Below are positions 6,979-57,013 of a stretch of DNA of 64,000 nucleotides, piece after piece (position 1 is the first letter of the stretch; each line of letters starts with the position of its first letter). The notes under the pieces are model-generated. The model was given only the letters and a program-made list of their open reading frames with translations. It searched no databases and was not told the origin of the DNA. The position numbers and the translations under genes were made by a program. The stretch spans positions 186,001 to 250,000 of the forward strand of contig PGZF01000001.1 in the NCBI GenBank assembly GCA_002840125.1. The letters are read 5' to 3'. This stretch comes from Gammaproteobacteria bacterium HGW-Gammaproteobacteria-15 (lineage in GTDB: Bacteria; Pseudomonadota; Gammaproteobacteria; Enterobacterales; Alteromonadaceae).

Positions 6979-7000
6979 TACGCCTACTGCTACTAATACG

Positions 7001-7023
7001 AAGGGCTCATACGAGCCCTTTTT
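7001..7023 (+). terminator. Intrinsic terminator of pyk
   Basis: An 8-bp stem AAGGGCTC/GAGCCCTT with a 4-nt loop is followed directly by a T-run. It lies 22 nt after the pyk stop codon and could also act for the convergent permease gene. Confidence 0.92.
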
Positions 7024-7035
7024 GCTGCCTGCTAT

Positions 7036-8007: not shown

Positions 8008-8218
8008 GGTGCAGATCCAATGTAATAAACAAAGTGGCAGGCGTTGCAGATTATATCTCTGCGCAGAGTGGCGCTATTTTCGCTTATTTTACCTGGTGCT
8101 GTCTTTAGACTGATACTGTTATATCGACTAACACACTAACTATTGCGCTATATCAAACACGGCCCGGACTTTAACACCCTATACTGAGCAACATGGTAGC
8201 TGTAAACAGAGATAAACG

Positions 8219-9208: not shown

Positions 9209-9228
9209 GCATGCCAGATAACAAGGTA

Positions 9229-37290: not shown

Positions 37291-37454
37291 ATTGCTCCCA
37301 TGATTTTTATATATTGTTATAGCGGCAAACTACCTTGGCGCTGCCTGCTTGGCAATGTACTGATAACACTGCTGCGACTAAATACCGGTTTTTACCGCTG
37401 ATTTGAACAACAGTCAGTATTTCGCCAACAGTGAATTGCCGCTATCATCAGCAG

Positions 37455-38276
37455 ATGACTCATTCCGTGCCGCGTATTCAGCGTCAATATTACCGTAATG
37501 GCCCACCACACCGTGGTGGTGCCGACGTTAGCTTTGCCGATCTGGTAAAAATTTTTGGCTTTAATAGCATTCATATTGGCCGCTGGGTAACGGCCGATGA
37601 ACTGCAACTGGCGGCAAATTTATTTTTCGATGCCTTTTGCGATTTACAACAATTGCTGCAGGTGCCGCCGCAGGTAATATCACTAAATGGCAGCTTAGCG
37701 CTGACTTTTGGCATTGGTGGCCAGCCTGGAGTGTGTGCGCATTACCAACCGCAGGGGCGTATTCTGGCACTTGCCAAAAACGCCGGTGGCGGCAGCCTGG
37801 CGCATGAATGGTTTCATGCCTTTGATCACTATATTGCCAGTAAAATGTTTGGCAATAACGCTACGCGTAACCAATTTTCCAGCCGCTGCTGGCTACAGCA
37901 TAAAACTATAATTCCGCATTATTTCAATTCGTTACTGGATGGCGCCTATAAAAAACTGTTTTTATCCGCTGATGGTAACAGTAGCAGCGATTTTTTTAAT
38001 CATTGCCGTAGATTAGACGCCGCGCAAAAACGTTTATACCTGGCTATGCCGGAGGAAATGGCGGCCAGAGCCTTTGAAAAAGTGCTACAGATGCAAAGCC
38101 TGAAAAACAGTTTTCTGGTGTCGGGTACGCTAAAAAGTAAAGCTGCCGAACTGGGAGTGTATCCGGATAATAGGCTTAGCACTGAACTTGCCGGTTTATG
38201 GCTGCAGTACTTCCGGTTATTAGGCCAGGGGCTGCAACATAAAACCCGCAGTAAAAATACCCTGGTGGACGGGTGA
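37455..38276 (+). CDS. LPD1/CLCA_X-like putative metalloprotease
   Basis: A 273-residue protein (281 if a GTG at 37431 is used; no clear ribosome site decides it). The core is FGFNSIHIGRWVTADE, then VISLNGSLALTFGIGGQPGVCAHYQPQGRILALAK and GGGSLAHEWFHAFDHY near residue 125. This is the layout of the large polyvalent protein-associated domain LPD1 and of proteins named CLCA_X. HEWFH is an HExxH zinc motif, so peptidase activity is likely but unproven. No signal peptide is seen. The 3' end is part of a long inverted repeat. Confidence 0.8.
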   Translation: MTHSVPRIQRQYYRNGPPHRGGADVSFADLVKIFGFNSIHIGRWVTADELQLAANLFFDAFCDLQQLLQVPPQVISLNGSLALTFGIGGQPGVCAHYQPQGRILALAKNAGGGSLAHEWFHAFDHYIASKMFGNNATRNQFSSRCWLQHKTIIPHYFNSLLDGAYKKLFLSADGNSSSDFFNHCRRLDAAQKRLYLAMPEEMAARAFEKVLQMQSLKNSFLVSGTLKSKAAELGVYPDNRLSTELAGLWLQYFRLLGQGLQHKTRSKNTLVDG

Positions 38277-38363: not shown

Positions 38364-41300
38364 TTAAAAAACAGCCCGCACACTTAGCGCATACCGACGA
38401 TCAGTGGTAAAGCTCAGTGCATCGGTTCTATCCCCGGCCTGATTCATCTGGTACTGGGTTTTAGTTTCTGTTTTCAGCAGATTGCTGCCTTCAATACCAA
38501 TTTTCCAGTTCTCGTTAATGCTGTAGTACAAGCTGGCGTCCATCATGCCGGATGCTTTGGCATAGGCTGGCACATACTCTTCAGATTCACGCAACGTCAG
38601 CAGGTACTCAGAGCGCCAGGTATAAGCCAGCCGGAATGAAATGTCGTTATATTCGTACATACCAACGATGTTCATATTCTGATCGGAATAGCCTTGCAAT
38701 GGCAAACCACCAAATACACGGAAGGTATTACGGTTGTCTGCTATGCGGTTACCATTTTCATCAAAGCCCAACGTCCCCTCTGACACAGCGTTAGGATCTT
38801 CCAGGCCACTCTGGTCGATGTAGGTGTAGTTAAACTGTAAACCCAAACCGCTCCAGGCACCTGGCAACATGTCATAGAACTGCGAGTACGAAAATTCAAC
38901 GCCGCGGATAGAGCCTGAGCCGGTGTTAGCCGGGCCATAAGCCGATACATCGTAACTTTGGCCGTTGTAGGCAATATCAAGATCAAATTGCCGGTTGCGG
39001 ATAATGTTATCCAGCTTTTTGTGAAAGATACCCAGATTCAAAAATCCGGCCGGTGCAAAATACCACTCTGCGGTTAAATCCAGATTGATTGACTCTTCCG
39101 GCTCCAGATAGGGGTTGCCCGCCAAAGCTGTCACTTCAATATCATCCAGCCCCACTACCGGGTTATTAACTTCATCCTGATCTTGCCCCGGTGTTTGCAG
39201 GCGACGGGTGTAGTCTAAATCGAGCAGGCTGATATTGCGGGCATCTACCAGGCTTGGATAATACAAACCTTTTGACGCACCAAAGCGCACGACTACGTCA
39301 TCGGTTATACCAAAGTTCAGGTTTAAGCTCGGTAATACGGTGTCGTAATCGGTGCCTTTTACCGTACTCAACTGAGATTCGCCGGACGCAAGATCGTAAT
39401 AGCGCCGGTACTCTGCTTGCTGCATTACATTGTTAAGCGACGTGCCGGGCTCACCACGTTTACTGGTTAACGGCTGTACAAAGGCACCGGTAGATTCCAG
39501 CTCGTAACTAACGTAGCGCAAACCAATATTACCTTTTACCGGAATATCCCAATCAGCAAACTCGAAATCACCGCGCAGATAAAACTCGGTACGCTTTTCA
39601 TTCGATGAACTAATGTTATGCGCAGCAAATGGCCCTTCAACACGGTTAGGCTTGTCGGCATAAGGCACATAGGTACCAGTGCAAACGCCGTTATTGGCCG
39701 CGCTTAGCGTAGCGTTGTGCCAGCCTTCCTGGCAGCCCTGGCGTAATGAGTTAGCATAGTTTTTCACCAGATCCATCCGCGGGAACAGAAAGTTATTAAC
39801 ATTACCTATCAGTACATTACCATTGTAGTAATCTGAAAAATCCACCCGCTCAAACAACTCAGGCCGGTTCACGGCAGCCGCGGCATTACGATCATTCATA
39901 TCCCAGGGAGTACCAATAGCAGACCAGCCTTCATACGCCGTATCACGCACGGTTAAGTCTTTATCGGTGTAATAAGCCCCTGTTTTAATGCCGGTGAAAA
40001 TGCCATCCAGCTCATAACTGAGGTCAAACTTAAAGCTGTTCGCTTTGGCGGTATTGTGCTCTTCCTGCTCCATACCACTGCCCAGAAATAAATTCGGCAC
40101 CGGCCCGTTCCAATCCTGATTCGGCGACCAGCCTGGGGTCAGAATATTATCGCTGAGAAACTCAACAGTTGGGCGGGAACCGCGCATGTCGAGGAAATAG
40201 GGTGATACCACATGCACATGATTACCACGGGTCTGGCCTGACATACTGTAGTTGTGTACCACTTTCTCAGAGTCTATGCGCTGATAATCAAAACTCAGTG
40301 CTAAGCGGTCTGTCGGTTTTAACTTCAGGTTAAATGAGGTGTCTTCAACGGTATTTTCGTTGTAGTTCCAACGGCTGCGATAGAAAAACGGCGTTTCAGG
40401 GCTAACGCCAAGCGCAACACCTGAAGTGACATAACCGTTTTCTACTGTTAACGGATGACCGTTGGCGGCATCGTCCCGCCAGTTTTGCGACGAGCCCATA
40501 AAACCTCTGAAACCTTGTGCCGCCTGGCCAATTTGCCGCTCATTCCACTCTAACGAGGCTTTAGAATTAATGTGCTCTAAGGTGGCCACTATGGTGTTAT
40601 CGGTATTTGCCCACTGCAAAGAGGTGGTAAAGCCGGTACGCTTGCGATCATTTTCGGCCGTACTCATGTGAATAGCTACCGGTACGTGCCAGACACTGCC
40701 AGCAGGCTGCCCAGGCAGTGCCGGGCCATCAACCGGTGAATCAGGATCAACACCGGTAATACCGCCCCACTCATCAGTGGTTGGGATAAAAGAGTCACCG
40801 CGGGAATGGAAATTACCTAAACCAATACCATCGCCACGTGATTTATATTCCGATTTAGAACCGGCAAGCAGAAAACCAAATTTACCGGCTTTGGTTTCCC
40901 AGCTATCAGAAAACAGCGCAGAGAACGACGGCGTCAGCTCTTCACGAAAATCGCCGTAGTTCGCTTTGGCATTAACAGATAACAACTGTTTATCAGAATC
41001 AAACGGCTTGCGGGTAATCAGATTAACCGTACCGGCAATACCACCGGAGATCAGATCTGCCGTCTGGTTTTTCACCACTTCTACTGAACCGAGCAATTCT
41101 GCCGGGAAGTCTTCATAGCTCAGGCCACCCCATGGGTTGGCACTAAAAGCACCACGGCCGTTGACTTCAGAGCGTACCCGATCCAGGCCACGCACCAGCA
41201 CGCCGGTACCTTCATCGGCATAGTGCTTTGGATCATCAGAAGAAGCAAAGCGCTCAATAGTAACACCGGGCACACGCTGTAAAGCTTCAGTAACTGATTT

Positions 41301-41582
41301 ATCCGGTAGTGCACCTATATCAGTGGCAGTGATAACGTCTTTAACGGTATCGGCATAACGCTTCAGGTTCTGTGCGTTATTAAGGCTGCTACGCATGCCT
41401 TTTACTTCAATAACCTCTACCGGCTCAGTTGCCTGTGCAGCAATGACACCGCTGTCATTTTCAGGCAAAGCCTGTGCAGCAAGCCAGCATGGGCTTATCC
41501 CCAGCAAAGCGGCAGTAATAGCCAGGCTTAACCGGTTTTGTTTGCTACTATACTTGTAATTATCGCTCAGTAATTCAGACAT
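38364..41582 (-). CDS. TonB-dependent receptor (large, TonB-Xanth-Caul type)
   Basis: A 1072-residue outer-membrane receptor with a signal peptide (about 1-36), a plug domain (LKRYADTVKDVITATDIGALPDK, then VTIERF and GVLVRGLDRVRSEVNGRGAF, ending SGGIAGTVNLITRKP) and a 22-strand barrel ending in the aromatic Phe RAVF. The length and plug are those of the long receptors of oligosaccharide-use loci in Xanthomonas, Caulobacter and Alteromonadales. It diverges from a GH20-fusion hexosaminidase; the intergenic region holds an element also found before the RpiR gene, so it likely imports the oligosaccharide or glycopeptide degraded by this locus. Confidence 0.92.
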   Translation of the reverse strand: MSELLSDNYKYSSKQNRLSLAITAALLGISPCWLAAQALPENDSGVIAAQATEPVEVIEVKGMRSSLNNAQNLKRYADTVKDVITATDIGALPDKSVTEALQRVPGVTIERFASSDDPKHYADEGTGVLVRGLDRVRSEVNGRGAFSANPWGGLSYEDFPAELLGSVEVVKNQTADLISGGIAGTVNLITRKPFDSDKQLLSVNAKANYGDFREELTPSFSALFSDSWETKAGKFGFLLAGSKSEYKSRGDGIGLGNFHSRGDSFIPTTDEWGGITGVDPDSPVDGPALPGQPAGSVWHVPVAIHMSTAENDRKRTGFTTSLQWANTDNTIVATLEHINSKASLEWNERQIGQAAQGFRGFMGSSQNWRDDAANGHPLTVENGYVTSGVALGVSPETPFFYRSRWNYNENTVEDTSFNLKLKPTDRLALSFDYQRIDSEKVVHNYSMSGQTRGNHVHVVSPYFLDMRGSRPTVEFLSDNILTPGWSPNQDWNGPVPNLFLGSGMEQEEHNTAKANSFKFDLSYELDGIFTGIKTGAYYTDKDLTVRDTAYEGWSAIGTPWDMNDRNAAAAVNRPELFERVDFSDYYNGNVLIGNVNNFLFPRMDLVKNYANSLRQGCQEGWHNATLSAANNGVCTGTYVPYADKPNRVEGPFAAHNISSSNEKRTEFYLRGDFEFADWDIPVKGNIGLRYVSYELESTGAFVQPLTSKRGEPGTSLNNVMQQAEYRRYYDLASGESQLSTVKGTDYDTVLPSLNLNFGITDDVVVRFGASKGLYYPSLVDARNISLLDLDYTRRLQTPGQDQDEVNNPVVGLDDIEVTALAGNPYLEPEESINLDLTAEWYFAPAGFLNLGIFHKKLDNIIRNRQFDLDIAYNGQSYDVSAYGPANTGSGSIRGVEFSYSQFYDMLPGAWSGLGLQFNYTYIDQSGLEDPNAVSEGTLGFDENGNRIADNRNTFRVFGGLPLQGYSDQNMNIVGMYEYNDISFRLAYTWRSEYLLTLRESEEYVPAYAKASGMMDASLYYSINENWKIGIEGSNLLKTETKTQYQMNQAGDRTDALSFTTDRRYALSVRAVF

Positions 41583-41718
41583 AGTTTAAGTCTCTTCTGT
41601 TCTTGTTGTAATCCATGCAACCTGTCAACCGCGTTAGCGCCGACAAAGCCGTTATGCACTTACCTTGCTCTTCCTGTTTAAAGCTGCCATTACTACCAAA
41701 TATGCCAAGCTCTGATGT

Positions 41719-41748
41719 TACTTTGTACCACGAAGATTAAAAAGTAAA
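41719..41748. promoter_or_regulatory. Shared inverted-repeat element A, TBDR/GH20 intergenic region
   Basis: The blocks TACTTTGTACCA (41719-41730) and AAAAGTAAA (41740-41748) occur at the same distance (21 nt between starts) as in element B at 49383-49412. Within them lies the inverted repeat TACTTT-N16-AAAGTA. A role as operator for the RpiR regulator at 48448 is inferred. It lies 137 nt from the TBDR start and about 72 nt from the GH20 start. Confidence 0.65.
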
Positions 41749-41819
41749 CATAATTCGATGAAAAAACTATCTTATATAGCATTGAATTCTAGACAAGCAC
41801 TTCTTTATTGCTTATTAAT

Positions 41820-44800
41820 ATGTTACCAAGTAACAATAAAGTGATCTGTGTTATGCGTTCAATCTGTTGCTGTGCCCTGCTGCTGTTAAGCAGTATGCCG
41901 TTGTTTGCTAAAAATAGCCTTGCTGCTACGGTGGCTCTGTTGCCCTATCCCGCCGAGATTGAGCAAGCTGAAGGTTACTTTGATCTCAGGCTGGGGCTAA
42001 CAATAAAAGTGCCACCAGACAACCCGGTGCTACAGGCAGCAGCCGAACGTTTTACTGCCCGTTTAGACCAAAGAGCCGGTTTTGCCATTCCGCTTTTGGC
42101 CGCTGCAAATGTGCAACTGCAACTTACCGGCCTACCCGCGGCAACTGGCGCAGTCCCTCAGCCGGATATGACAGAGCAGTATTACCTGCGTGTCACTAAC
42201 ACAGAGATTATCCTCAGTGCAGCTGCTGAAACCGGCATTCTGCGTGGCCTGGAAACCCTGTTACAGCTGGCTGACAAGGGTAAAATTGCTGCAGTTAGTA
42301 TTAAAGATCAGCCGCGTTTTAGCTGGCGCGGCCTGCTATTGGACCCGGCCCGGCGTTTTTTACCTCTGGGGGTGTTAAAACGGCAGATCGATATTATGGC
42401 GGCAGCCAAACTTAATGTCCTGCACCTGCATTTAACCGACGATCAGGGCTGGCGCTTTGAATCAAAGCTCTTTCCCAAACTGCAACAAATTGGCGGCGCT
42501 GATGGCTTTTATACCCAGGCAGAGCTGAAACAACTGGTACATTACGCCGCAGAGCGCGGCATCCGGGTGGTACCCGAAATTGACTTACCCGGCCACACTA
42601 CTGCTCTTGGAGCGGCCTACCCTGAGTTTATGAGCCAGCCCGGCCCCGCAGAGCCAGAGCAGCATTGGGGCGTGCATCCGGCCGTGCTTGACCCGGCAAA
42701 TGAGCAACTTTATCCGTTTTTGCAGCAGTTACTGGCTGAAGTCGCCGATGTATTTCCTGATCCTTATCTGCATATTGGCGGTGATGAGGTGCTAAGTGAG
42801 CACTGGCTGGCTACGCCGCATATTGTGGCCTTTATGCAGCAACAGCAGCTTGATGGTGCGCCGGCACTGCAAGCCTATTTCAACCGCCGTTTACAGCAGA
42901 TTTTGCAGCAACTGGGCCGCAATATGATTGGCTGGGATGAAGTACTGGACAGCAACTTACCAAACTCCGTGCTGATACAGTCCTGGCGTGGCACCGAATC
43001 CTTGTATCAGGCCGCTGCAGCCGGCCACAACGCGATTTTATCAACCGGCTATTATCTTGATCAGCCCCAGTTTGCCGGTTATCACTACCGTAATGATCCG
43101 CTACCGCAAGCAACAGCAGTACCAGATCTGACCCAGTTACAACAATGGTCGGCCTGGCAGTTTAGCTTCGACCGTCTGCGCGGCAATGCTATTTCCGGTA
43201 AGTTACTGCTGCTTAGCTTTAACGATGGCGCTGTTAAAGGGGCAATTGAATTTAGCGGGCGCAAAGCAGCAATGCTCAATGATCTTGTTGTTAATGCCAA
43301 TACGCTAACCTTTACGGTTGACAGTTGGATGGGGCCGTTAAGCGCTCAGCTGCAGTTAGGCGCAACGCTGTCCGGGCAGCTTGTCACCGGTAATGCGCCC
43401 TATCAGGTTAACGGCCAGGCACTGGCCTTACAGCAAAGCGCGGCAACCACTCTGCCGTTTAGCCTGCAACCGATCGATGTTAACGACGCTATGCACGCAA
43501 ACATTCTGGGTGGGGAAATTACCTTATGGGCCGAGCTGGTGACACCGGATAATATTGATATCCGGCTCTGGCCCAATGGCTTTGCTGTAGCTGAACGTTT
43601 ATGGTCAAGCGCCAGCATCCGCGATGAAGCCAGCCTGCACCAGCGCATGCAACGTATTACACAACAATTAACGACAGAAGGCAGCCTGCAGCATATACAG
43701 CAACAGCGTGCCGGCTTTACATTTTTAGCCACTGATTATGCTGACACCCTTGAACATCTGACGCAGATACTGGAACCCGCACACTATTACCACCGGTTGC
43801 ACCAGAAATCAGCTGCTGGCCTTTACCATAAAGCGGCTGCGCTAAATCAGTTAGTTGATTTTCTGCCCGCCGAAAACCCGCAGCTGCAGCAGTTTTCGCA
43901 GGTATTACAGCGCTGGCTGAAACAACAGGATGCTACAGATACCGCCTGGCTCACCCGGCAACTACAACAATGGCAGCATGCGGCTGATACTCTTATAACA
44001 GCTGCAGCTGCGCCACAGCATACAAAGCTAAAGCCGTATGTCCCTGAGCTGCAGCGGATCAGTGCGCTGTGTCAGTTGGGGCTGTTACTGCTTAACAGTA
44101 TCAGCTCACAAACACCGTTAGAGAATGTTGTGCGACAGCAAATAGCCCGACAACTACAACAGGCTGGCGCTATTTCGCAAGAAATGATTATTGCGCTGCA
44201 CCGCCCGTTGCAGCAGTTGTTTGACTATGCCCCGCACAGCCAGGTTTGGCTACCGGCAAACACCTTTAGTGCCGAGGCTGAGGGCCCGGCAGTTGATAGT
44301 ATGGGTAACCTTTATGCCGTTAACTTTGGCCACGACAGTGCTATTAACAGCACCGCTACTGCTGGCGGAACCATTGGCAAAGTGACACCAGACGGACAAG
44401 CCAGCTTATATTTAACCCTGCCACAGGGCAGCACCGGTAACGGTATAGTATTTGGCCCAAGTGGTAGCTTATATAGCGGAGCCATGTTTATCGCCGATTA
44501 TACCGGCCATAATATTTTGCGTTACGCACAAGGTAAGCTTGAGGTATATGCGCACAATAAAGCCATGCATCAGCCTAATGATCTGGCCATTATGCAAAGC
44601 GGCGTTATCTTTGCCAGCGATCCAGACTGGGCCAATAGCAGCGGGCAGCTTTGGCGCATAGATACTGACGGCTCCAGCCAGTTACTGTATAGCAATATGG
44701 GCACAACCAACGGTATTGCCGTAAGCCCGGATCAGCAATTTTTATATGTTAATGAAAGCGTGCAGCGCCGGGTATGGCGTTTTCGCATCAACGCCGATAA

Positions 44801-45056
44801 CTCACTGAGCGATAAACACCTGTTTGCCCAATTCAGTGATTTTGGTCTTGATGGGATGCGTTTTGATAGCAAAGGCAGTTTGTATATTGCCCGCTACGGT
44901 AAAGGTACAGTGGTAAAGCTGGATAACGCAGGCCGTATCCAGCAGGAATACCGGCTGAACCATGCTCTGCCAACTAATGTCAGCCTGAACCCGGATAACA
45001 GCACACTCTATGTCACGATACAGCAGTGCGGCTGTATTGAGCGGATACAGCTATAG
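41820..45056 (+). CDS. GH20 beta-N-acetylhexosaminidase fused to SMP-30/gluconolactonase-like propeller
   Basis: 1078 residues from ATG 41820 (an ATG at 41853 would give a tidier signal peptide, MRSICCCALLLLSSMPLFA). The first domain (about 50-400 plus 560-600) is GH20: HLHLTDDQGWRFESK near residue 205 and LHIGGDEVLSEHW with the catalytic Asp-Glu near residue 322. A beta-rich insert of about 120 residues (roughly 437-564) splits the catalytic barrel before NILGGEITLWAELV. The C-terminal 260 residues form an SMP-30/gluconolactonase-like propeller with ligand-type Glu (AEGPAVD), Asn (TNGIAVSPD) and Asp (LDGMRFD). It is secreted or periplasmic. The substrate is presumably a GlcNAc- or GalNAc-containing glycan. 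Confidence 0.85.
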   Translation: MLPSNNKVICVMRSICCCALLLLSSMPLFAKNSLAATVALLPYPAEIEQAEGYFDLRLGLTIKVPPDNPVLQAAAERFTARLDQRAGFAIPLLAAANVQLQLTGLPAATGAVPQPDMTEQYYLRVTNTEIILSAAAETGILRGLETLLQLADKGKIAAVSIKDQPRFSWRGLLLDPARRFLPLGVLKRQIDIMAAAKLNVLHLHLTDDQGWRFESKLFPKLQQIGGADGFYTQAELKQLVHYAAERGIRVVPEIDLPGHTTALGAAYPEFMSQPGPAEPEQHWGVHPAVLDPANEQLYPFLQQLLAEVADVFPDPYLHIGGDEVLSEHWLATPHIVAFMQQQQLDGAPALQAYFNRRLQQILQQLGRNMIGWDEVLDSNLPNSVLIQSWRGTESLYQAAAAGHNAILSTGYYLDQPQFAGYHYRNDPLPQATAVPDLTQLQQWSAWQFSFDRLRGNAISGKLLLLSFNDGAVKGAIEFSGRKAAMLNDLVVNANTLTFTVDSWMGPLSAQLQLGATLSGQLVTGNAPYQVNGQALALQQSAATTLPFSLQPIDVNDAMHANILGGEITLWAELVTPDNIDIRLWPNGFAVAERLWSSASIRDEASLHQRMQRITQQLTTEGSLQHIQQQRAGFTFLATDYADTLEHLTQILEPAHYYHRLHQKSAAGLYHKAAALNQLVDFLPAENPQLQQFSQVLQRWLKQQDATDTAWLTRQLQQWQHAADTLITAAAAPQHTKLKPYVPELQRISALCQLGLLLLNSISSQTPLENVVRQQIARQLQQAGAISQEMIIALHRPLQQLFDYAPHSQVWLPANTFSAEAEGPAVDSMGNLYAVNFGHDSAINSTATAGGTIGKVTPDGQASLYLTLPQGSTGNGIVFGPSGSLYSGAMFIADYTGHNILRYAQGKLEVYAHNKAMHQPNDLAIMQSGVIFASDPDWANSSGQLWRIDTDGSSQLLYSNMGTTNGIAVSPDQQFLYVNESVQRRVWRFRINADNSLSDKHLFAQFSDFGLDGMRFDSKGSLYIARYGKGTVVKLDNAGRIQQEYRLNHALPTNVSLNPDNSTLYVTIQQCGCIERIQL

Positions 45057-45087
45057 CTTATTAAACACGAGCTTAGTAAATATAAGC

Positions 45088-46545
45088 CTAGTCAAACGGC
45101 TGCTCTGTAATGGGCCACAGTGGCCGGCTAAGCTTGCGATAGCCATTACGCTTAGGATCGCTGGGGTACGGGGCTCCGGCATCGACGTACAAAATTTGCG
45201 CAGCCAGCGGAGCAAAACCCTGGTAAAAATGGTTAGTGGATTTTACCAGCAGCAAGCTGCACTGCTGCGGCGCTATGCCCAGAGCTTGGAATAAACTCGG
45301 GTCAAACGACTGGCAACGGTTGCTGTTTAAAATGACCTCAATACCATCGAAGGTAATTAAAGCACAATCGCCCATAGGCACATTGCTATCAGCAAACTGC
45401 TGCTGCGCATTTGCCTTCAGCCTGACAACCTTAACCTCTTTGTCTATTGGCGCTCCGGCTGTGGCACAGCTTTTACCACCAAAACGCAAGTTTATTACCG
45501 CGCCCTCTCCTGCGGCAAAACACAGCTTTACGGCCATCGGGTCCCAAATGGTGCCTACCGCAACCCCTGTCAGCCCGCGAGCAATGATCTGCTGCAATAT
45601 CAGGGTGCCGTCTCCGGCAACCCCACCGCCCGGGTTGTCCCAGACATCGGCCAGCACTGTAGTACCCCCGCTGCATTGCTGGGCTAAATCCAGGGCTGCG
45701 TCAATACCATGAAACTCCGGCAAGGTTTTACCACGAAATGAAAACAGCTCCAGGCCAAGCTGACGCGCCAGTTGCTGGCCAAGTTGTGGCTGGTTATCGG
45801 TGATCACCAGCAAGCGCGAGCCCATATCCGGCACGTCACCCGCCATAAAGCCGTGGATCACCGAAACAGATAACACGCCGGCCTGTTGCTCCATCTGCCG
45901 CACTTTAGCAATAAACGATTTCATCGGTTCATGGCTGGTAGGCAACACATCTATCATCCGGCAGTCAAAACTGCTCATGCAGGGGGTTATCTGGCGCTGC
46001 ACTGCGGCGACTGCAAGCTGGACTAATTCCCGCGCGCACTGCATAAAATCAAGATGTGGAAACTCTTTGAATGCAATCAACAAATTAGCGGCCTGCAGCC
46101 GCTCTGGCGTTAAATGGCTATGCGGATCCAATGTAGCGCCTATAATCACCTCTGGCCCGGTAATAGCACGGACATGCTGCAGTAAATCGCCTTCGCAATC
46201 GTCATATCCCTGGGCTACCATAGCGCCGTGCAAACCCAGCAGCACCGCCTGCACCGGCATAGCCTCGCGCAGTTGCAGCAATATTTCATCCCGCAGTAGC
46301 TCGTACGACTGACGGTTAAGTAAACCACCAGGCTCTGCCCAGGCACAGCTACCCTCTATTATTTCAGTACCGGCATGTGCCTGAGCATATTCACGACAGG
46401 CAATTAACGGAGCACTGCACAGCGTAGGTGTGGCCGGATGCTGGCCCGGCGCCGCATAAAAACTCTGATAAAAGCTGTGCACATCAGTATACATTGGAGA
46501 GAAAGTATTGGTTTCAGTGGCCAGAGACGCCGTAAAAATACGCAT
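45088..46545 (-). CDS. M81 family metallopeptidase (MlrC-like)
   Basis: A 485-residue protein starting MRIFTASLATETNTFSP, the signature N-terminus of MlrC/M81 enzymes. Further family motifs are GLHGAMVAQGYDDCEGDLLQ near residue 105 and ATLDPHSHLTPE near residue 136, which hold the putative zinc ligands, TSHEPMKSF, and VWDNPGGGVAGDGT near residue 290. MlrC opens linearised microcystin, a peptide with D-amino acids; other members are poorly characterised. It has no signal peptide, so it is cytoplasmic. It is the last gene of the leftward RpiR-RidA-SSS-M81 operon, 14 nt after the symporter gene, with GAGGAACT before its ATG. Confidence 0.9.
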   Translation of the reverse strand: MRIFTASLATETNTFSPMYTDVHSFYQSFYAAPGQHPATPTLCSAPLIACREYAQAHAGTEIIEGSCAWAEPGGLLNRQSYELLRDEILLQLREAMPVQAVLLGLHGAMVAQGYDDCEGDLLQHVRAITGPEVIIGATLDPHSHLTPERLQAANLLIAFKEFPHLDFMQCARELVQLAVAAVQRQITPCMSSFDCRMIDVLPTSHEPMKSFIAKVRQMEQQAGVLSVSVIHGFMAGDVPDMGSRLLVITDNQPQLGQQLARQLGLELFSFRGKTLPEFHGIDAALDLAQQCSGGTTVLADVWDNPGGGVAGDGTLILQQIIARGLTGVAVGTIWDPMAVKLCFAAGEGAVINLRFGGKSCATAGAPIDKEVKVVRLKANAQQQFADSNVPMGDCALITFDGIEVILNSNRCQSFDPSLFQALGIAPQQCSLLLVKSTNHFYQGFAPLAAQILYVDAGAPYPSDPKRNGYRKLSRPLWPITEQPFD

Positions 46546-46559
46546 AGTTCCTCGATGAT

Positions 46560-48047
46560 TTATTGCCGCTCAGGCAGCGATCCCTGCGGCAGTGATTCAG
46601 TTACAGTTTGATATTCTTCACGTTGTGCACTGATAAGTTTCAGTGCTTCTGCCCGGCTGGTGCGACAAGGTGGTGTCAGCAGACTTACAGCAACCGCTGC
46701 CAGCAAGGCACAACCTACGGCTGGCAGGCAGGGGTTGCCCCAGTAAGCCAGCCATTGTGACTGGCTGATCAGTACCAACGACGTTGTAATGGCTCCCAGC
46801 ATAGCGGCTAAGGCCCCTTGCCAGTTAAGCCGCAGCCAGAACCGGCCCAGTATTGCTACCACAAACATGCCGGACATCAGCGTCGCAATCATATTGCTGA
46901 TATAGCGGATCAAATCATCTGATAACAACGCCAGTAGCAAGGCCACACCAGACACCAGCAGCACCGATAAACGGGCATATAAAATGGCTTTATCAGGCGG
47001 CGGCATAGCACCGTTGATTGCCTGATAAAAATCGCGGATCAGCACCGATACCGCCGCGATAGCATCAGAGCTGGCCGACGATAGCGTGGCAGAAAGGCCG
47101 GCAAGCAGCACCAGCATCGCCAGAGACGCGGGTAATACCAGCACGGCGACAGTAGTAAAAGCAAACTGGTGGTTCTCAAGTTGAGGTGCCAGTGAAAACG
47201 CCGCTATACCAATCACCGCCGGCAGTGCGGCAAAAACCAGATACAGTACACCGGAGAAAATAAAAGATCGCCGCACAGTGCCTATACTGCGCGCAGCATA
47301 GATGCGCTGGCGAAACGAAGGTGTTGCCAGCACCCCCACAGTAACAACAGCGGCCAGTGAAATTGCCGGCAACAGCGGCAACTGCTGCATCATGCCCAGT
47401 TGCCTAGCCGAGGCAACAGCTGTACCCAGCGCCATAACACCACCTGCGGCCTGCACAGCGGCATAGCTCATCAGCAAAAAGCCGGCAAATAATATCAATG
47501 CCATCAGGCTGTCTGTCCACACCACCGCGCGGTAACCGCCGATCATTACATACAAGGTAAATGCCATGGCAATTAACAGCTTGCTGTAAAAAAGCTCCAG
47601 CCCGGTAGCCCAGGACAAATACAGCGCACCACCAATAATATGTGCGCCCATCCAGCCCAGTGACGCCAGAAAAATCATTACCGCACTGCAGTGTTTAACC
47701 CGAAAATTGGCCCCGGCGTAATAACTCAGCTCTTCACTCATGGTCATAAAACGCATACGTCTGAGTGGAGCAAATAACCAGGCCGTCAGTAAAATGCCAA
47801 CCGCACCGCCGATACCATACAACATACCGCCCCAGCCATGCTGATAGGCATAGCCTACCGCCCCCATACTGGTGCCGGTACCAATCATAGTGGCTACAGT
47901 GGTGCCAAATGTCAGGCCACCAGACACATTGCGCCCAGCCAGCAAAAAGTCTTCGCTGCTATGCTGTTTGCGTGATACCAGATAACTTATTACTATCATC
48001 AGCAACAGATACAGGCCAAACCCCAGCAAAAACAGGCTGCTATTCAT
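46560..48047 (-). CDS. Sodium:solute symporter (SSS family)
   Basis: A 495-residue inner-membrane protein with about 13 hydrophobic segments. The N-terminus has SSEDFLLAGRNVSGGLTFGTTVATMIGTGTSMGAVGYAYQHG and the core GGYRAVVWTDSLMALILF, both standard for solute:sodium symporters; LSATLSSASSDAIAAVSVLIRDFY is the conserved SSS segment with Na-binding Ser residues. It starts 1 nt after the RidA stop. From its neighbours the cargo is likely an amino acid, small peptide or amino-sugar product, but sequence alone cannot tell. Confidence 0.92.
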   Translation of the reverse strand: MNSSLFLLGFGLYLLLMIVISYLVSRKQHSSEDFLLAGRNVSGGLTFGTTVATMIGTGTSMGAVGYAYQHGWGGMLYGIGGAVGILLTAWLFAPLRRMRFMTMSEELSYYAGANFRVKHCSAVMIFLASLGWMGAHIIGGALYLSWATGLELFYSKLLIAMAFTLYVMIGGYRAVVWTDSLMALILFAGFLLMSYAAVQAAGGVMALGTAVASARQLGMMQQLPLLPAISLAAVVTVGVLATPSFRQRIYAARSIGTVRRSFIFSGVLYLVFAALPAVIGIAAFSLAPQLENHQFAFTTVAVLVLPASLAMLVLLAGLSATLSSASSDAIAAVSVLIRDFYQAINGAMPPPDKAILYARLSVLLVSGVALLLALLSDDLIRYISNMIATLMSGMFVVAILGRFWLRLNWQGALAAMLGAITTSLVLISQSQWLAYWGNPCLPAVGCALLAAVAVSLLTPPCRTSRAEALKLISAQREEYQTVTESLPQGSLPERQ

Positions 48048-48048
48048 C

Positions 48049-48441
48049 TTAAGCTCTGTCAGCGCGATAGCATGTCAGATCAACTTCTACTTTGCAGTCA
48101 ACCACTAAATCGGCCACGGCACAGATCCGTGCCGGCGGCGCCTCGCTGAACACCCGGCGAAACACCTGATTAAAACTGCTGAAATACCGTGCATCGGTTA
48201 GATACACCTTTACATGCACCACATCACAAAGGCTGTAGCCAGCCTGCTGCATAATATCCAGGCAATTTTGCAGCGCCAGCTCAGATTGCTCAACAATGCC
48301 GCCTTCCACTACCTCGCCATTGCGCATTGGTGTCTGGCCCGATACATACAACCAGCCTGCGGCTTCTACCGCTTTGGCAAACGGCAGTTTTTGCCCGCCG
48401 GTGCCGGTACTTTCATCCACACCATAACGTTTTATCGTCAT
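48049..48441 (-). CDS. RidA/YjgF family enamine/imine deaminase
   Basis: A 130-residue RidA-fold protein (LPFAKAVEAAGWLYVSGQTPM, then ARICAVADLVVDCKVEVDLTCYR). The Arg in PPARICAV and the Glu in CKVEVDL are the positions that bind the carboxylate and water in RidA. The family hydrolyses reactive 2-aminoacrylate and related imines released by PLP-dependent dehydratases. That fits the PLP enzyme encoded on the other side of the regulator. It starts 6 nt after the RpiR gene and is followed immediately by the symporter. Confidence 0.93.
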   Translation of the reverse strand: MTIKRYGVDESTGTGGQKLPFAKAVEAAGWLYVSGQTPMRNGEVVEGGIVEQSELALQNCLDIMQQAGYSLCDVVHVKVYLTDARYFSSFNQVFRRVFSEAPPARICAVADLVVDCKVEVDLTCYRADRA

Positions 48442-48447
48442 TGCTAA

Positions 48448-49323
48448 TTAATCTCCCAGTGGCTGACGGTCATCACCGCCGCGATGGCTGTCGAGCGATA
48501 GTTTTACCCGGCGTAATTTGTCACGCGATTTGCGTTTATTCAGTTTGGCCACTTCGGTTGCCAGCACATCAATAATGGCCAGCATGGCATAACGTGACGC
48601 TGAAGGTTTGTAGATAAAATCGGTTTCCGGCGCCTGCAAGCCCAGCACAATGTCGGCATTGGCGGCAAGTTGTGAACCAGGCTTGGTAATAGCAATGACT
48701 CTGGCACCATACTGACGGGCAATAGCGGCTGAGTCGATAATCTCACCGGTGTTACCGGTTAACGAAATAGCCACTACTACATCTTGCGGTTCAACTGCCG
48801 CCGCTACCATTCGTGTTAATAAGCCATCCTGATAACTGCATACCGGCATGCCAAAGCGAAACAAGCGGTATTGCAGTTCCTGTGAACCAATAGATGAGCC
48901 GCCACCCATACCAATACAGAAGATCATCCGCGCCTGTTGTAAATAGCTGACCGCCAGTTTTATATCAGCCTCTACCAATAACTTGCGGCTTAAGTCCAGC
49001 GTATTTTTAATCGCTTCATACACGCCCTGAATACCATCCAGATCAGGGGTTTCTTCCACAAAGCGCTGCCCTACTGCTAAGGATTGCGCCAGTTTAACCT
49101 TAAGCTGACGTACATCTTTACAATCCACCGTGCGGGCAAAACGGGTAACCGTTGCCTGGCTAACACCAGCACTTTCAGATAGCCTGGCAATACTCATTTC
49201 ACTGGCAGCTTTTACATTATCCAGTATGACCTGAGCCACCCTTTGTTCAGATTCACTCATTTCGACAAAGCGCTCTGAGATACGTGACAGCACATCTATT
49301 TCATAACTCATAGTTTTATCCAT
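48448..49323 (-). CDS. RpiR/MurR-family regulator of the locus
   Basis: A 291-residue regulator with an HTH domain at about 1-85 (SESAGVSQATVTRFARTV) and a SIS domain at about 125-260 (FCIGMGGGSSIGSQELQYRLFRFG, VAISLTGNTGEIIDSA). It shares the layout and end (RDKLRRVKLSL) with HexR but is clearly a separate paralogue. The first ATG (49323) or the fifth codon (49311) could be the start. It heads the leftward operon. A shared element lies upstream at 49383-49412 and again in the TBDR/GH20 gap, so it probably controls the whole locus. The effector is likely a sugar phosphate or related compound, by family. Confidence 0.9.
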   Translation of the reverse strand: MDKTMSYEIDVLSRISERFVEMSESEQRVAQVILDNVKAASEMSIARLSESAGVSQATVTRFARTVDCKDVRQLKVKLAQSLAVGQRFVEETPDLDGIQGVYEAIKNTLDLSRKLLVEADIKLAVSYLQQARMIFCIGMGGGSSIGSQELQYRLFRFGMPVCSYQDGLLTRMVAAAVEPQDVVVAISLTGNTGEIIDSAAIARQYGARVIAITKPGSQLAANADIVLGLQAPETDFIYKPSASRYAMLAIIDVLATEVAKLNKRKSRDKLRRVKLSLDSHRGGDDRQPLGD

Positions 49324-49334
49324 TTGCTTATGGT

Positions 49335-49362
49335 GTTACTCAGTAACCTTTGCTAAAGTAAC
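49335..49362. promoter_or_regulatory. GTTACT/AGTAAC half-site cluster before the RpiR gene
   Basis: GTTACTCAGTAAC (49335-49347) is a perfect 13-bp palindrome, followed by AAAGTAAC at 49355-49362. Both are variations on the half-site in elements A and B. The cluster is 12-39 nt from the regulator start, a suitable place for autoregulation. Confidence 0.45.
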
Positions 49363-49382
49363 ATTTCAACCTAACTTAAAGG

Positions 49383-49412
49383 TACTTTGTACCAAAGCAA
49401 CATAAAAGTAAA
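49383..49412. promoter_or_regulatory. Shared inverted-repeat element B, RpiR/PLP-enzyme intergenic region
   Basis: TACTTTGTACCA (49383-49394) and AAAAGTAAA (49404-49412) repeat element A with identical spacing; over 35 aligned bases (49381-49415 against 41717-41751) I count 25 identities. The inverted repeat TACTTT-N16-AAAGTA lies inside. It sits midway between the divergent RpiR and PLP-enzyme genes. Confidence 0.68.
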
Positions 49413-49488
49413 TATCAATATGGCTTTATTACAGTAATTTACCAAAATTAAAGCGATATAAACATTAACAAGCCAAGAGCGCAATGTT

Positions 49489-50712
49489 ATGAAGTACCAA
49501 AATATATGGCAAAAATCTGCAAGCCCGCTGGCTGACCAGCAACACTTAAACTTGTTGCAACAGGATATCTGCCTGCCTGCTGTTATTCTGAAACACAGTG
49601 CGCTGTTGCATAACCTGCAGTGGATGCAGAACTTTGCCGATGCCAGCGGGGTGTTGCTGGCACCACATGGTAAAACCAGCATGACGCCCTGGTTATTTCA
49701 GCAGCAACTGGCCGCCGGTGCCTGGGGTATTACTGTGGCAACGTCTTATCAGGCACAGGTTGCAGTGCAAGCCGGTGCCCGGCGGCTGATCCTGGCAAAC
49801 CAACTGGTGGGTAAAGCGAATATGGCAGTTATTGCCGCACTGCTGGCCAGCGGTAATGAGATTTATGTCTGTATCGACAATATTGATAACGCCAGCGCAC
49901 TGTCAGCCTTTTTCAGCGCCGAAGGCTTATGTTTGCCTGTGCTGATAGAGCTTGGTGTACCTGGTGGAAGATGCGGTTGTCGCACTAACCAGCAGGCCGT
50001 TGAACTGGCACAACAGCTGGCAACGTTGCCAGGGCTGAGTCTGGCAGGTATAGAGTTTTATGAAGGGGTAATTAAGAGCACAGACACCGCACGCACTGTG
50101 CGCCAGTTTGTGCAACAGGCCGCGGCGCTGGCTAAAGCCCTGTTCAGACAACAACTGCTGCACTACCCCAGAGCACTAATCAGCGGCGCCGGCTCGGTTT
50201 GGTATGACATAGTGGCAGCAGAGCTGAAAAAAGCCACCTTACCCGATACCATGCAGATAGTGCTACGTCCGGGTTGCTATGTCAGCCATGATCTGGGTAT
50301 TTACCAGCAGGCACAACAACAGGTTTTGGCCCGCAGTAATACGGCTTGTCGTTTAGGCGAAAACTTACAAAACGCGCTTGAACTGGCGGCTTATGTGCAA
50401 TCGCTGCCAGAGCCGGGGCTGGCAGTGCTGGGGTTTGGTAAACGCGATGCCGCCTTTGACGCCGGCTTGCCCCAGGCCATTGCTATTTACCGTAATGGGC
50501 AATTGCTAAGCGATACACTCAGCCAGTGTGAAACCAGTAAAGTCATGGATCAACATGCCTTCTGGCGCTACGACAATACCATTCAGCCTCAGGTTGGCGA
50601 CATGGTATTGCTGGGGACTTCACACCCCTGCCTGACGTTTGATAAGTGGCGCAGCCTGTGGCTGGCAGATGATAATTACAATCTGCTGCAAAGCCTGGAA
50701 ACCTGTTTTTGA
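49489..50712 (+). CDS. D-threonine aldolase / D-serine dehydratase-like PLP enzyme (amino acid deaminase)
   Basis: A 407-residue alanine-racemase-fold enzyme. APHGKTSMTPWL contains the PLP-binding K62, with the barrel running to about residue 260. The C-terminal D-serine-dehydratase-like domain ends with GTSHPCLTFDKW, where H379 and C381 match the zinc ligands of DSD1-type D-serine dehydratases. Enzymes of this type remove the amino group or cleave D-amino acids (D-Ser, D-Thr and others). It is transcribed rightward, divergent from the RpiR operon, across the shared element. RidA in the neighbouring operon would handle its enamine product. Confidence 0.88.
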   Translation: MKYQNIWQKSASPLADQQHLNLLQQDICLPAVILKHSALLHNLQWMQNFADASGVLLAPHGKTSMTPWLFQQQLAAGAWGITVATSYQAQVAVQAGARRLILANQLVGKANMAVIAALLASGNEIYVCIDNIDNASALSAFFSAEGLCLPVLIELGVPGGRCGCRTNQQAVELAQQLATLPGLSLAGIEFYEGVIKSTDTARTVRQFVQQAAALAKALFRQQLLHYPRALISGAGSVWYDIVAAELKKATLPDTMQIVLRPGCYVSHDLGIYQQAQQQVLARSNTACRLGENLQNALELAAYVQSLPEPGLAVLGFGKRDAAFDAGLPQAIAIYRNGQLLSDTLSQCETSKVMDQHAFWRYDNTIQPQVGDMVLLGTSHPCLTFDKWRSLWLADDNYNLLQSLETCF

Positions 50713-50727
50713 TCGATAGGCCTTTTG

Positions 50728-51471
50728 CTAGTTAAGCAACATACCGGCGCTAAATACCGGCCCGGCCAGTTGCGCCGGGTTATGCATACATAATTGCCGG
50801 GCTTGTTCTTCACCAACAAGCTGACAACTGTGCTGGTATGCCTGTTGTAGTTTAGGCGGGCGGCGTTTAACAGAGTGAGCGTCGCTGGCAATAACATGAT
50901 ACAGCCCCTGCTTTAACCATTGCTGTGCTAAGGCTTTAACATCCTGCCCCATATCACCATCAAGCGCAGCAGCGGTTAACTGAAACAGGCAACCGGCTTT
51001 AATAAAGGGCTTAATTTTATCCGGTGCGGCCAGCAAATCGCGGTTTCGTTCCGGGTGCGCCAGCATAACTGTAATATCATGCCGTGCCAGCCATGCCAAA
51101 AGTTTATCGCTACCTGCCGGAATATGGCTGTGCGGCAACTCCAGTAACAGCACCTTATTACCCTGATAACGGCCAATAAAAGGCATTTGTTGCTGTTCTA
51201 TCAATGGCAATATTTCTGCGCCGATCCTAACCTCGGCAGCCGCAGCCAGTGTAATGCCAATACCTGCAGCACTTGCAGCCTGTTGCAGCGCCGTTATGGC
51301 TTCAGTTATCGAGGCAGCATTGTTGTTATAACGCCCGGCATGCAGGTGCGGGGTAGCCAGCATATGGCTTATGCCCTGTTGCTGTGCCAGTTGCAGCAAA
51401 GCCAGCGCCTCGGCCATATCTTTGGCGCCGTCATCAACGCCGGGCAATATATGGTTATGCAGATCAAACAT
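50728..51471 (-). CDS. PHP-family protein-tyrosine phosphatase (CpsB/YwqE-like)
   Basis: A 247-residue (from ATG 51471) PHP-domain phosphatase: MFDLHNHILPGVDDGAKDMAEAL has the H-x-H metal site and ATPHLHAGRY the next ligand. LLLELPHSHIPAG and MLAHPERNRDL follow, and ASDAHSVKRRPP closes the trinuclear site. It dephosphorylates the BY-kinase encoded just upstream (26-nt gap), as CpsB does for CpsD. It is the last gene of the exopolysaccharide operon. The frame can open at 51492, but the Met at 51471 has the better-spaced AGGCGG and matches the family. Confidence 0.92.
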   Translation of the reverse strand: MFDLHNHILPGVDDGAKDMAEALALLQLAQQQGISHMLATPHLHAGRYNNNAASITEAITALQQAASAAGIGITLAAAAEVRIGAEILPLIEQQQMPFIGRYQGNKVLLLELPHSHIPAGSDKLLAWLARHDITVMLAHPERNRDLLAAPDKIKPFIKAGCLFQLTAAALDGDMGQDVKALAQQWLKQGLYHVIASDAHSVKRRPPKLQQAYQHSCQLVGEEQARQLCMHNPAQLAGPVFSAGMLLN

Positions 51472-51497
51472 AAGCATACCGCCTGCCGGCAATGGGT

Positions 51498-53660: not shown

Positions 53661-53662
53661 AA

Positions 53663-55392: not shown

Positions 55393-55403
55393 CTGTCTTC
55401 CTG

Positions 55404-56801: not shown

Positions 56802-57013
56802 CTCTGGTGCTCCGCATTCGCTGTTGTAGAAAGCAAAAGTCACAAGCCGGTACGGCTGGCTATTCACTTTTGCTATTCTTATTAAACTACTGCGTCTGTG
56901 TGGGCTGTTACAAACGAACATTTATAACCCGTTGAGTTAGAAAAATTCACCCATAATTAATACTTTATTAATAGATTGGTTCACTTTTCATTCAGCTAAA
57001 GCATGCTACTACT

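What the first reader, a model, noticed from the sequence alone, without database searches (positions are those of the whole stretch)
38364..50712. Candidate regulon for degrading an amino-sugar / D-amino-acid substrate
Seen: a long TonB receptor diverges from a GH20-fusion enzyme, followed by an RpiR-RidA-SSS-M81 operon that diverges from a DSD1-like PLP enzyme. Known: GH20 frees HexNAc, M81 (MlrC) acts on D-amino-acid-containing peptides, DSD1-type enzymes deaminate D-amino acids, and RidA clears their enamine products. Inferred: one coherent pathway taking glycopeptide such as peptidoglycan fragments through the outer membrane to pyruvate and ammonia. No N-acyl-D-amino-acid deacylase or sugar kinase is present, so the pathway is incomplete or uses M81 as the deacylating/peptidase step. 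I know of no described system with this exact gene set.
Basis: partly seen in the sequence, partly recalled or inferred. Interest (0 to 1): 0.78.

Follow-up and report, generated by a model that had tools for sequence, protein, structure and literature searches.

The report
Oxidised-chitin gene cluster, swapped deacetylase
This is a Rheinheimera version of the known bacterial gene set for eating oxidised chitin, in which the essential deacetylase appears to have been replaced by an unrelated zinc enzyme otherwise known from breaking down a cyanobacterial toxin, so one enzyme assay would test a new enzyme function.

Summary
It is a variant of the ong cluster (Pseudoalteromonas prydzensis, 2022), which imports C1-oxidised chitooligosaccharides and turns GlcNAc1A into KDG. 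TBDR=OngOT, GH20=OngA, SSS=OngIT, RidA=OngD, RpiR=OngR, PLP enzyme=OngC. The genome also has ChiA-ChiC-LPMO and, elsewhere, a KdgK-like kinase with KDPG aldolase. New features: the essential deacetylase OngB is absent (0 of 31 genus genomes) and a zinc M81 (MlrC-type) enzyme stands in the operon; OngA is fused to an SMP-30-type domain; KdgK has left the cluster. The M81 clade is otherwise almost wholly alphaproteobacterial, often beside other DSD1-type PLP, RidA, RpiR and GH20 genes. It keeps MlrC's zinc ligands, but five MlrC substrate residues are replaced by other invariant ones. Best reading: M81 is a non-homologous GlcNAc1A deacetylase. This is inferred, not assayed. Against: 13 of 78 clade loci sit beside a peptidase, and 38 alphaproteobacterial genomes tested have no LPMO.

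The parts
38364..41582 (-). TonB-dependent receptor (OngOT-type), predicted outer-membrane import of oxidised chitooligosaccharides
   Evidence: TIGR01782 571 bits; 57% and 79% to the receptors beside the PLP genes of OngB-type loci L048 and L049
41808..45056 (+). GH20 hexosaminidase (OngA-type) fused to a C-terminal SMP-30/gluconolactonase-like domain; true start probably ATG 41853
   Evidence: PF00728 312 bits, PF08450 120 bits; GH20 tree groups it with the order's ong GH20s apart from alphaproteobacterial ones; separate SGL gene next to GH20 in L048, L049, L051
44364..45017 (+). SMP-30/gluconolactonase-like domain of the fusion (residues 853-1070 of the TTG-started ORF)
   Evidence: PF08450; aligns to 7plb SMP-30/Cgr1 family protein over residues 101-257 of the query
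45088..46545 (-). M81 (MlrC-type) zinc amidase, proposed GlcNAc1A deacetylase in place of OngB
   Evidence: PF07364/PF07171; 7ylq MlrC E 1.6e-112; Zn ligands E11, D140, H142, H164 in 38 of 38 aligned clade members; model pLDDT 89.9, closest fold 7ylq TM 0.88
46560..48047 (-). SSS-family sodium symporter (OngIT-type)
   Evidence: PF00474; 51-58% to the SSS of 21 OngB-bearing loci
48049..48441 (-). RidA-family protein (OngD-type)
   Evidence: PF01042; 70-82% to 27 OngB-bearing loci, 35-57% to 50 alphaproteobacterial-type ones
48448..49323 (-). MurR/RpiR-family regulator (OngR-type)
   Evidence: PF01418+PF01380; 42-66% to 25 OngB-bearing loci; groups with them apart from alphaproteobacterial ones, SH-aLRT 99
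49489..50712 (+). DSD1-like PLP enzyme (OngC-type), proposed GlcN1A deaminase
   Evidence: PF01168+PF14031; 42-55% to the PLP enzymes of 27 OngB-bearing loci; closest solved structure 3gwq 'D-serine deaminase' E 1.3e-109
41717..41729 (+). operator candidate GTTACTTTGTACC in the TBDR/GH20 divergent region
41822..41834 (+). operator candidate GTTACCAAGTAAC in the GH20 leader
49335..49347 (+). operator candidate GTTACTCAGTAAC in the RpiR/PLP divergent region
49381..49393 (+). operator candidate GGTACTTTGTACC in the RpiR/PLP divergent region
41719..41751 (+). bipartite element TACTTTGTACCA-N10-AAAGTAAACAT, first of two in the window
   Evidence: 2 matches, 0.00 expected
49383..49415 (+). bipartite element TACTTTGTACCA-N10-AAAGTAAATAT, second of two

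Best explanation
The locus is an OngR-controlled oxidative chitin utilisation (ong) cluster with a swapped deacetylase. Chitinases and an AA10 LPMO encoded elsewhere release C1-oxidised chitooligosaccharides. The TonB receptor brings them into the periplasm. The GH20 half of the fusion trims GlcNAc from the non-reducing end, and the fused SMP-30-type domain opens any terminal 1,5-lactone, giving GlcNAc1A (2-acetamido-2-deoxygluconate). The SSS symporter imports it. The cytoplasmic M81 zinc amidase removes the acetyl group (the OngB step), the PLP enzyme deaminates GlcN1A to KDG, RidA assists, and the KdgK-like kinase and KDPG aldolase of a separate hexuronate cluster finish. The RpiR regulator represses both divergent promoter pairs through the GTTAC-N3-GTAAC elements. 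Shown: gene content, synteny, kinship to ong parts, absence of OngB, presence of LPMO, chitinases and a KdgK-like kinase in the genome, shared promoter elements, conserved zinc ligands. Inferred: substrate, M81 reaction, lactonase role, locations, and which protein binds the elements.
For: Published ong cluster with knockouts and assays: OngOT, OngA, OngIT, OngB, OngC, OngD, KdgK, OngR. Of 32 non-genus loci of the order read around the PLP gene, 27 hold OngB, 0 M81; of the 27, 27 have RidA, 25 RpiR, 23 SSS, 16 GH20, 14 KdgK. The Amidohydro_3 protein of L049 has solved PpOngB (9kb1, E 5.8e-174) as best PDB match. In the genus, M81 is in 11 of 31 genomes, the PLP enzyme in the same 11 of 31, OngB in 0 of 31; the OngB query rings in 12 of 13 non-genus PLP-bearing genomes given as positive control. 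M81 is the part whose nearest kin outside the genus are alphaproteobacterial (53-60%) against 32% or less in the rest of the order sample. Of 78 non-genus clade loci, 53 have a DSD1-type PLP gene within 9 kb, 51 RidA, 69 RpiR, 30 GH20, 41 all of the first three; 0 of 7 control M81-paralogue loci has any of the three. MlrC cuts the Adda-Glu amide, chemically an N-acyl-Glu bond (that the Glu is D is recalled). Zn ligands are kept in 38 of 38 while MlrC's W59, F67, E70, F96 and Q468 are A, T, L, W and H in 38 of 38. Own genome has two GH18 chitinases and the LPMO in a row, and a KdgK-like kinase with KDPG aldolase. Promoter elements.
Against: No activity of any M81 enzyme on a sugar acid has been shown. 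LPMO is in 8 of 11 carriers but also in 5 of 9 tested non-carriers of the genus, so it does not track the cluster; the KdgK-like kinase is in 11 of 11 carriers and 5 of 9 non-carriers. 0 of 38 tested alphaproteobacterial genomes with the M81 clade have an LPMO, so their substrate may differ. 13 of 78 clade loci have an M3 oligopeptidase beside M81, which fits a peptide substrate there. The full-length alphaproteobacterial PLP rows are only 23-27% like the window's (20 rows). MlrC's N41 and D341 are also kept, and F96 to W is conservative, so part of the pocket is shared. The element is weak in OngB-type relatives: 8 sites in 6 of 29 loci, second of 320 palindromes. GH20 is only 34-41% like the order's ong GH20s. 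M81 stands after SSS, not in OngB's place.
Confidence: 0.76

Rival explanations
1. One reading: the locus degrades glycopeptides or peptidoglycan fragments. GH20 frees HexNAc, M81 cuts D-amino-acid peptides, the PLP enzyme deaminates D-Ser/D-Thr to keto acids.
For: OngC deaminates D-Ser and D-Thr in vitro; the characterised M81 enzyme cuts a peptide-type bond; 13 of 78 M81-clade loci sit beside an M3 peptidase; an M14 carboxypeptidase gene lies about 1 kb left of the receptor gene, at 34609-37290, and near the cluster in 3 of the 9 loci fetched (L179-L181).
Against: Receptor, GH20, SSS, RidA, RpiR and PLP are kin of ong parts; in P. prydzensis deletion of the ong receptors or SSS did not affect growth on MurNAc; apart from M81 no peptidase, and no amidase or muramic-acid gene, is among the seven genes; the fused domain is SMP-30/gluconolactonase-like.
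Confidence: 0.09
2. It is an ong cluster for GlcNAc1A, but M81 is not the deacetylase: some other enzyme of the genome deacetylates and M81 handles a different N-acyl or peptide by-product.
For: No direct assay; M81 stands at the end of the operon after SSS, not in OngB's place between RpiR and RidA.
Against: No OngB-like match in any of 31 genus genomes at E 0.001; M81 and the PLP enzyme are in the same 11 of 31; M81 independently sits with PLP/RidA/RpiR/GH20 in alphaproteobacteria; order relatives show OngB 27 of 32, M81 0 of 32.
Confidence: 0.11
3. The cluster serves a different N-acylated sugar acid (for example N-acetylgalactosaminate, or GlcNAc1A made by oxidising free GlcNAc rather than by LPMO), with M81 chosen for that substrate.
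For: 3 of 11 carriers lack an LPMO match; 60 of 78 alphaproteobacterial-type loci have an SDR gene and 13 a TRAP transporter gene within 9 kb, and 0 of 38 tested have LPMO; a lactonase domain would suit enzymatic oxidation.
Against: 8 of 11 carriers have LPMO and the window's genome has it next to two GH18 chitinases; no SDR among the seven genes.
Confidence: 0.15

Closest known systems
ong cluster for oxidative chitin utilisation, Pseudoalteromonas prydzensis ACAM 620 (PMC9537276)
   Same: TonB receptor, GH20, SSS, PLP deaminase, RidA, RpiR regulator in one cluster; host has an AA10 LPMO next to GH18 chitinases
   Different: OngB absent, M81 instead; KdgK not in the cluster; SMP-30-type domain fused to GH20; gene order and operon borders differ
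MlrC, microcystinase C of Sphingomonas sp. ACM-3962 (M81, PDB 7YLQ)
   Same: fold (TM 0.88), 194 of 473 aligned residues identical, zinc ligands E39/D167/H169/H191, also N41 and D341
   Different: W59, F67, E70, F96, Q468 replaced by invariant A, T, L, W, H in the clade; different operon
PpOngB GlcNAc1A deacetylase (PDB 9kb1, PMC12017989)
   Same: proposed reaction and pathway position; metal-dependent amide hydrolase
   Different: unrelated fold: D-aminoacylase-like barrel against the MlrC fold
SMP-30/gluconolactonase-type proteins (e.g. 7plb)
   Same: PF08450 domain, alignable over 157 residues
   Different: fused to GH20; substrate here inferred; not part of the published ong cluster

Membership tests
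ong cluster (oxidative chitin utilisation) | OngC-type PLP enzyme with OngD RidA, OngR RpiR, OngIT SSS and OngA GH20 in one cluster | tested here: met
ong cluster (oxidative chitin utilisation) | OngB GlcNAc1A deacetylase present (essential in P. prydzensis) | tested here: not met
   absent from the locus and from 31 of 31 genus genomes (positive control 12 of 13)
ong cluster (oxidative chitin utilisation) | KdgK in the cluster | tested here: not met
   not in the locus; KdgK-like kinase and KDPG aldolase in a hexuronate cluster elsewhere. Of 27 OngB-bearing order loci only 14 have KdgK in the stretch read
ong cluster (oxidative chitin utilisation) | AA10 LPMO in the genome | tested here: met
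   G000 C9:459824, beside two GH18 chitinases
ong cluster (oxidative chitin utilisation) | RpiR repression of receptor and catabolic operons | tested here: inconclusive
   shared elements found in both divergent promoters; binding not testable here
ong cluster (oxidative chitin utilisation) | growth on and induction by GlcNAc1A | not testable with these tools
   needs bench work
M81 family (MlrC fold) | PF07364/PF07171 and MlrC-type zinc ligands | tested here: met
microcystinase MlrC (NCBIfam NF041767) | score above the curated cut-off and conserved microcystin-binding residues | tested here: not met
   390 bits against a cut-off of 999; of the 10 listed residues 2 kept, 5 replaced by other invariant residues, 3 variable

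The most novel reading that the evidence does not exclude
A whole clade of M81 enzymes (Rheinheimera and many Alphaproteobacteria) is a new, non-homologous family of N-acetyl-aminosugar-acid deacetylases. It defines a second, independently assembled form of the GlcNAc1A pathway (M81 + another DSD1-type PLP enzyme + RidA + RpiR, with TRAP or ABC import and sometimes KdgK) outside the Gammaproteobacteria, and Rheinheimera has transplanted its deacetylase into the gammaproteobacterial ong cluster.
Probability: 0.5. Interest if true: 0.7.

Novelty: new variant of a known kind. Interest (0 to 1): 0.55.

Why it matters
If M81 deacetylates GlcNAc1A, it is a second fold for the committed step of oxidative chitin catabolism, it gives a natural role to a protein clade now named after a toxin-degrading enzyme, and it means that surveys using OngB as the marker miss this genus and possibly many Alphaproteobacteria. 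The fused SMP-30-type domain would add a lactonase step that the published pathway does not include. The claim is directly testable with one purified enzyme and a known substrate.

Tried and rejected
Peptidoglycan/D-amino-acid reading: weighed and ranked low (see rivals). Chance grouping of two unrelated halves: rejected by synteny in 11 of 11 genus carriers with differing flanks and shared promoter elements.

M81 as an ordinary gammaproteobacterial gene: rejected. Of 394 order genomes (own included) 11 have any M81; apart from the own genome and one congener the best is 32% identical. Of 369 class genomes (own included), 3 besides the own genome pass E 1e-50.

LPMO as a marker that tracks the cluster within the genus: not supported (8 of 11 carriers against 5 of the 9 tested of 20 non-carriers). 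LPMO as the source of substrate in Alphaproteobacteria: 0 of 38 tested genomes, of 78 loci (the only positive control named there is Lactococcus lactis, and the genomes' completeness is not given).

Palindrome as a genome-wide regulon: 21 sites in the own genome against 16 for the pattern read backwards. Of the 17 sites outside this locus I inspected 8: 7 lie inside ORFs of 135 aa or more and 1 (L191) overlaps only a 68-aa ORF. No further regulon member was found among these.

Literature that led nowhere: the listings gave no title or abstract tying M81 to sugar acids, or Rheinheimera to this pathway. In the main texts of the two ong papers the words M81, Rheinheimera and lactonase do not occur (supplements not seen).

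The first script run of locus annotation read only part of the files and was repeated. A first element pattern had the wrong spacer and found nothing, repeated correctly.

Full report
What is there. From left to right: a TonB-dependent receptor (-), a GH20 hexosaminidase fused to an SMP-30/gluconolactonase domain (+), then M81, SSS symporter, RidA and RpiR (all -), and a DSD1-like PLP enzyme (+). To the right lies a CpsB/CapC gene (-), to the left a CLCA_X gene and an M14 carboxypeptidase gene.

The host. One same-genus genome, G761, has a first contig of 1,072,845 bases, the same length as the Rheinheimera aquimaris KCTC 12840 contig that carries the same locus (L085). The window is therefore from Rheinheimera or its GTDB equivalent (inference).

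The known system. The gene set matches the ong cluster of Pseudoalteromonas prydzensis (PMC9537276; I read section 5, parts 1-3 of 4, and section 17). There OngOT imports C1-oxidised chitooligosaccharides, OngA (GH20) frees GlcNAc1A, OngIT (SSS) imports it, OngB (D-aminoacylase-like) deacetylates, OngC (PLP) deaminates to KDG, KdgK phosphorylates, OngD (RidA) is essential with unknown role, and OngR (RpiR) represses the receptor and ongCRBD operons. Single deletions of ongB, ongC, ongD, kdgK and ongIT abolish growth on GlcNAc1A.

Relatives. Of 394 genomes of the order, own included, 41 have a PLP match at E 1e-30. Besides the own genome I read the surroundings of 33 of the other 40 (one of them the congener G254) and of 7 control M81 loci. 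Of the 32 non-genus PLP loci, 27 hold OngB and none M81. Of those 27, 27 have RidA, 25 RpiR, 23 SSS, 16 GH20, 14 KdgK and 14 a KDPG aldolase in the stretch read; 22 have PLP, OngB, RidA, RpiR and SSS together. The 5 without OngB are L046, L051-L054. Pfam was run on the Amidohydro_3, PfkB, SGL or KDPG-aldolase proteins of four of the loci (L048, L049, L071, L074). The Amidohydro_3 protein of L049 has the solved PpOngB (9kb1) as its best PDB match, E 5.8e-174, ahead of D-aminoacylase. Window proteins are close to the parts of the OngB-bearing loci: RidA 70-82%, SSS 51-58%, RpiR 42-66%, PLP 42-55%, GH20 34-41% (rows that passed a length filter without a stop). Quick trees place the window's GH20, RidA and RpiR with these sets and apart from alphaproteobacterial copies, with warnings about long branches. 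For PLP the tree separates the order's and the alphaproteobacterial sets with the genus between them, root undetermined.

What differs. (a) OngB is missing. In 31 genus genomes M81 is present in 11, the PLP enzyme in the same 11, and OngB in none. The same OngB query rings in 12 of 13 non-genus PLP-bearing genomes given as a control; the exception, G302, keeps only PLP, GH20 and SGL in the stretch read. (b) M81 sits in the operon after SSS. (c) KdgK is not in the locus, but the genome has a KdgK-like kinase (33% to the L049 one) next to a KDPG aldolase and hexuronate genes. Such a kinase is in 11 of 11 carriers and 5 of 9 tested non-carriers. (d) OngA carries an SMP-30-type domain. In three relatives of two other genera (L048, L049, L051) a separate SGL gene of 46-49% identity, with a signal-peptide-like start by eye, lies beside GH20, so the fusion joins two genes that are neighbours elsewhere. 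I read the domain as a lactonase for the C1 lactone end; this is inference from the family.

One regulon. In all 11 genus carriers the seven genes stay together, though flanks differ, for example L177, L178 and L182. A further metagenome locus, L086, has six of them, with a GH20 lacking the SGL domain and no receptor in the stretch read. The two divergent promoter regions share the element TACTTTGTACCA-N10-AAAGTAAAYAT, found exactly twice in the window (0.00 expected), and the palindrome GKTACNNNGTAMC four times (0.16 expected). The palindrome recurs in both promoters of the other 10 genus carriers. Genome-wide it is near chance, 21 against 16 for the control, and 7 of 8 inspected outside sites (of 17) are inside ORFs. 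Exact matches also occur upstream of the PLP gene in L050 and of an RpiR gene in L065 and L068. With one mismatch allowed, GTTACNNNGTAAC has 8 sites in 6 of 29 relatives' loci, second of 320 palindromes of like composition.

The M81 enzyme. Of 394 order genomes 11 have M81; besides the own genome and one congener these are at most 32% identical. Two are genus-like; the other 78 are 53-60% identical and, by their titles, alphaproteobacterial except L105 (Lentisphaerales) and L124 (title says only 'Bacterium'). The M81 tree groups the genus with this set, SH-aLRT 98, apart from gamma M81 paralogues; I gave it 36 of the 78, and it warns of long branches among the paralogues. Within 9 kb of M81, 53 of the 78 have a DSD1-type PLP gene, 51 RidA, 69 RpiR, 30 GH20; 41 have all of the first three and 21 all four; 3 have none of the first three, two of them on short contigs. 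OngB and SGL were found in none of the 78. None of 7 control M81-paralogue loci of the order has PLP, RidA or RpiR. Closely related genomes are many, so these are not independent counts. Parasedimentitalea L147 shows the pattern best: RpiR, TRAP transporter, M81, PLP, PfkB kinase, RidA, then GH20.

Active site. MlrC's zinc ligands E39, D167, H169, H191 (PMC9982164, passages) map to E11, D140, H142, H164, present in 38 of 38 clade proteins (window, 2 genus-like and 35 of the 78). Of the ten substrate-site residues that paper lists, N41 and D341 are kept; W59, F67, E70, F96 and Q468 map to A31, T39, L42, W69 and H439, also invariant in 38 of 38; the other three positions vary. So the zinc chemistry is kept and the pocket seems set for another substrate shared by the clade. 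MlrC hydrolyses the Adda-Glu amide (PMC4810221 and PMC12474180, passages). Since that Glu is a D-residue acylated on its nitrogen (recalled), the step resembles N-acyl-D-amino-acid deacylation, the chemistry from which OngB is said to have evolved (PMC12017989, outline with abstract, section 9 and a word search). The AlphaFold model (mean pLDDT 89.9, residues 304-311 under 50) has 7YLQ as closest fold, TM 0.88, so M81 and OngB have unrelated folds.

Substrate supply. The own genome has two GH18 chitinases and a GbpA-like LPMO in a row, much like the published chitinase-LPMO cluster. LPMO is in 8 of 11 carriers and 5 of 9 tested non-carriers, so it does not track the cluster.

Other literature seen. 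An Aeromonas study (PMC11653859, passages) found LPMO, KdgK and KdgA homologues but no close OngB or OngC, and says other deacetylases and deaminases cannot be excluded. A natronoarchaeal study (PMC12343721, passages) predicts a GlcN to glucosaminate route by glucose dehydrogenase, a parallel for oxidation without LPMO.

Results against. No M81 enzyme acting on a sugar acid appeared in the listings. None of 38 tested alphaproteobacterial-type carriers (of 78) has an LPMO match, so GlcNAc1A there would have to come from another oxidation, perhaps the SDR found near 60 of 78, or the substrate differs. Thirteen of 78, 11 of them titled Mesorhizobium, have an M3 peptidase beside M81. Seventeen carry a second M81 gene, whose role is unknown.

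Verdict. A real, coherent regulon, already known in kind, with a new variant at its key step. M81 as the substitute GlcNAc1A deacetylase is the most economical reading and is one assay away from proof or refutation.

Noticed in passing
L163 3729-5168, L158 3896-5410: A second M81 gene lies directly beside GH20 in rhizobial-type M81 clusters (17 of 78 loci have one within 9 kb); its role is unknown.
   Followed up: partly
L095 11507-13561 and similar loci: In 13 of 78 M81-clade loci an M3-family oligopeptidase flanks M81 (in L095 with ABC permease genes on the other side), hinting at a peptide substrate in that subgroup.
   Followed up: partly
L051 (G302) 5782-10467: A family relative keeps only PLP, GH20 and SGL side by side, with no OngB or M81 match in the genome: a decayed or third variant of the cluster.
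   Followed up: partly
L048 203-1138, L049 18125-19078, L051 5782-6696: A separate SMP-30/gluconolactonase gene with a signal-peptide-like start sits next to the GH20 gene; it is not part of the published ong pathway.
   Followed up: partly
window 34609-37290 and 37431-38276: An M14 carboxypeptidase gene and a CLCA_X family gene with an LPD1 domain lie left of the receptor gene and keep that place in some genus members (CLCA_X in L176, L178-L181, L184; M14 in L179-L181).
   Followed up: no
window 50728-58279: Exopolysaccharide-like genes (CpsB/CapC by Pfam; Wzc-like and glycosyltransferase-like proteins by eye) immediately right of the cluster.
   Followed up: no
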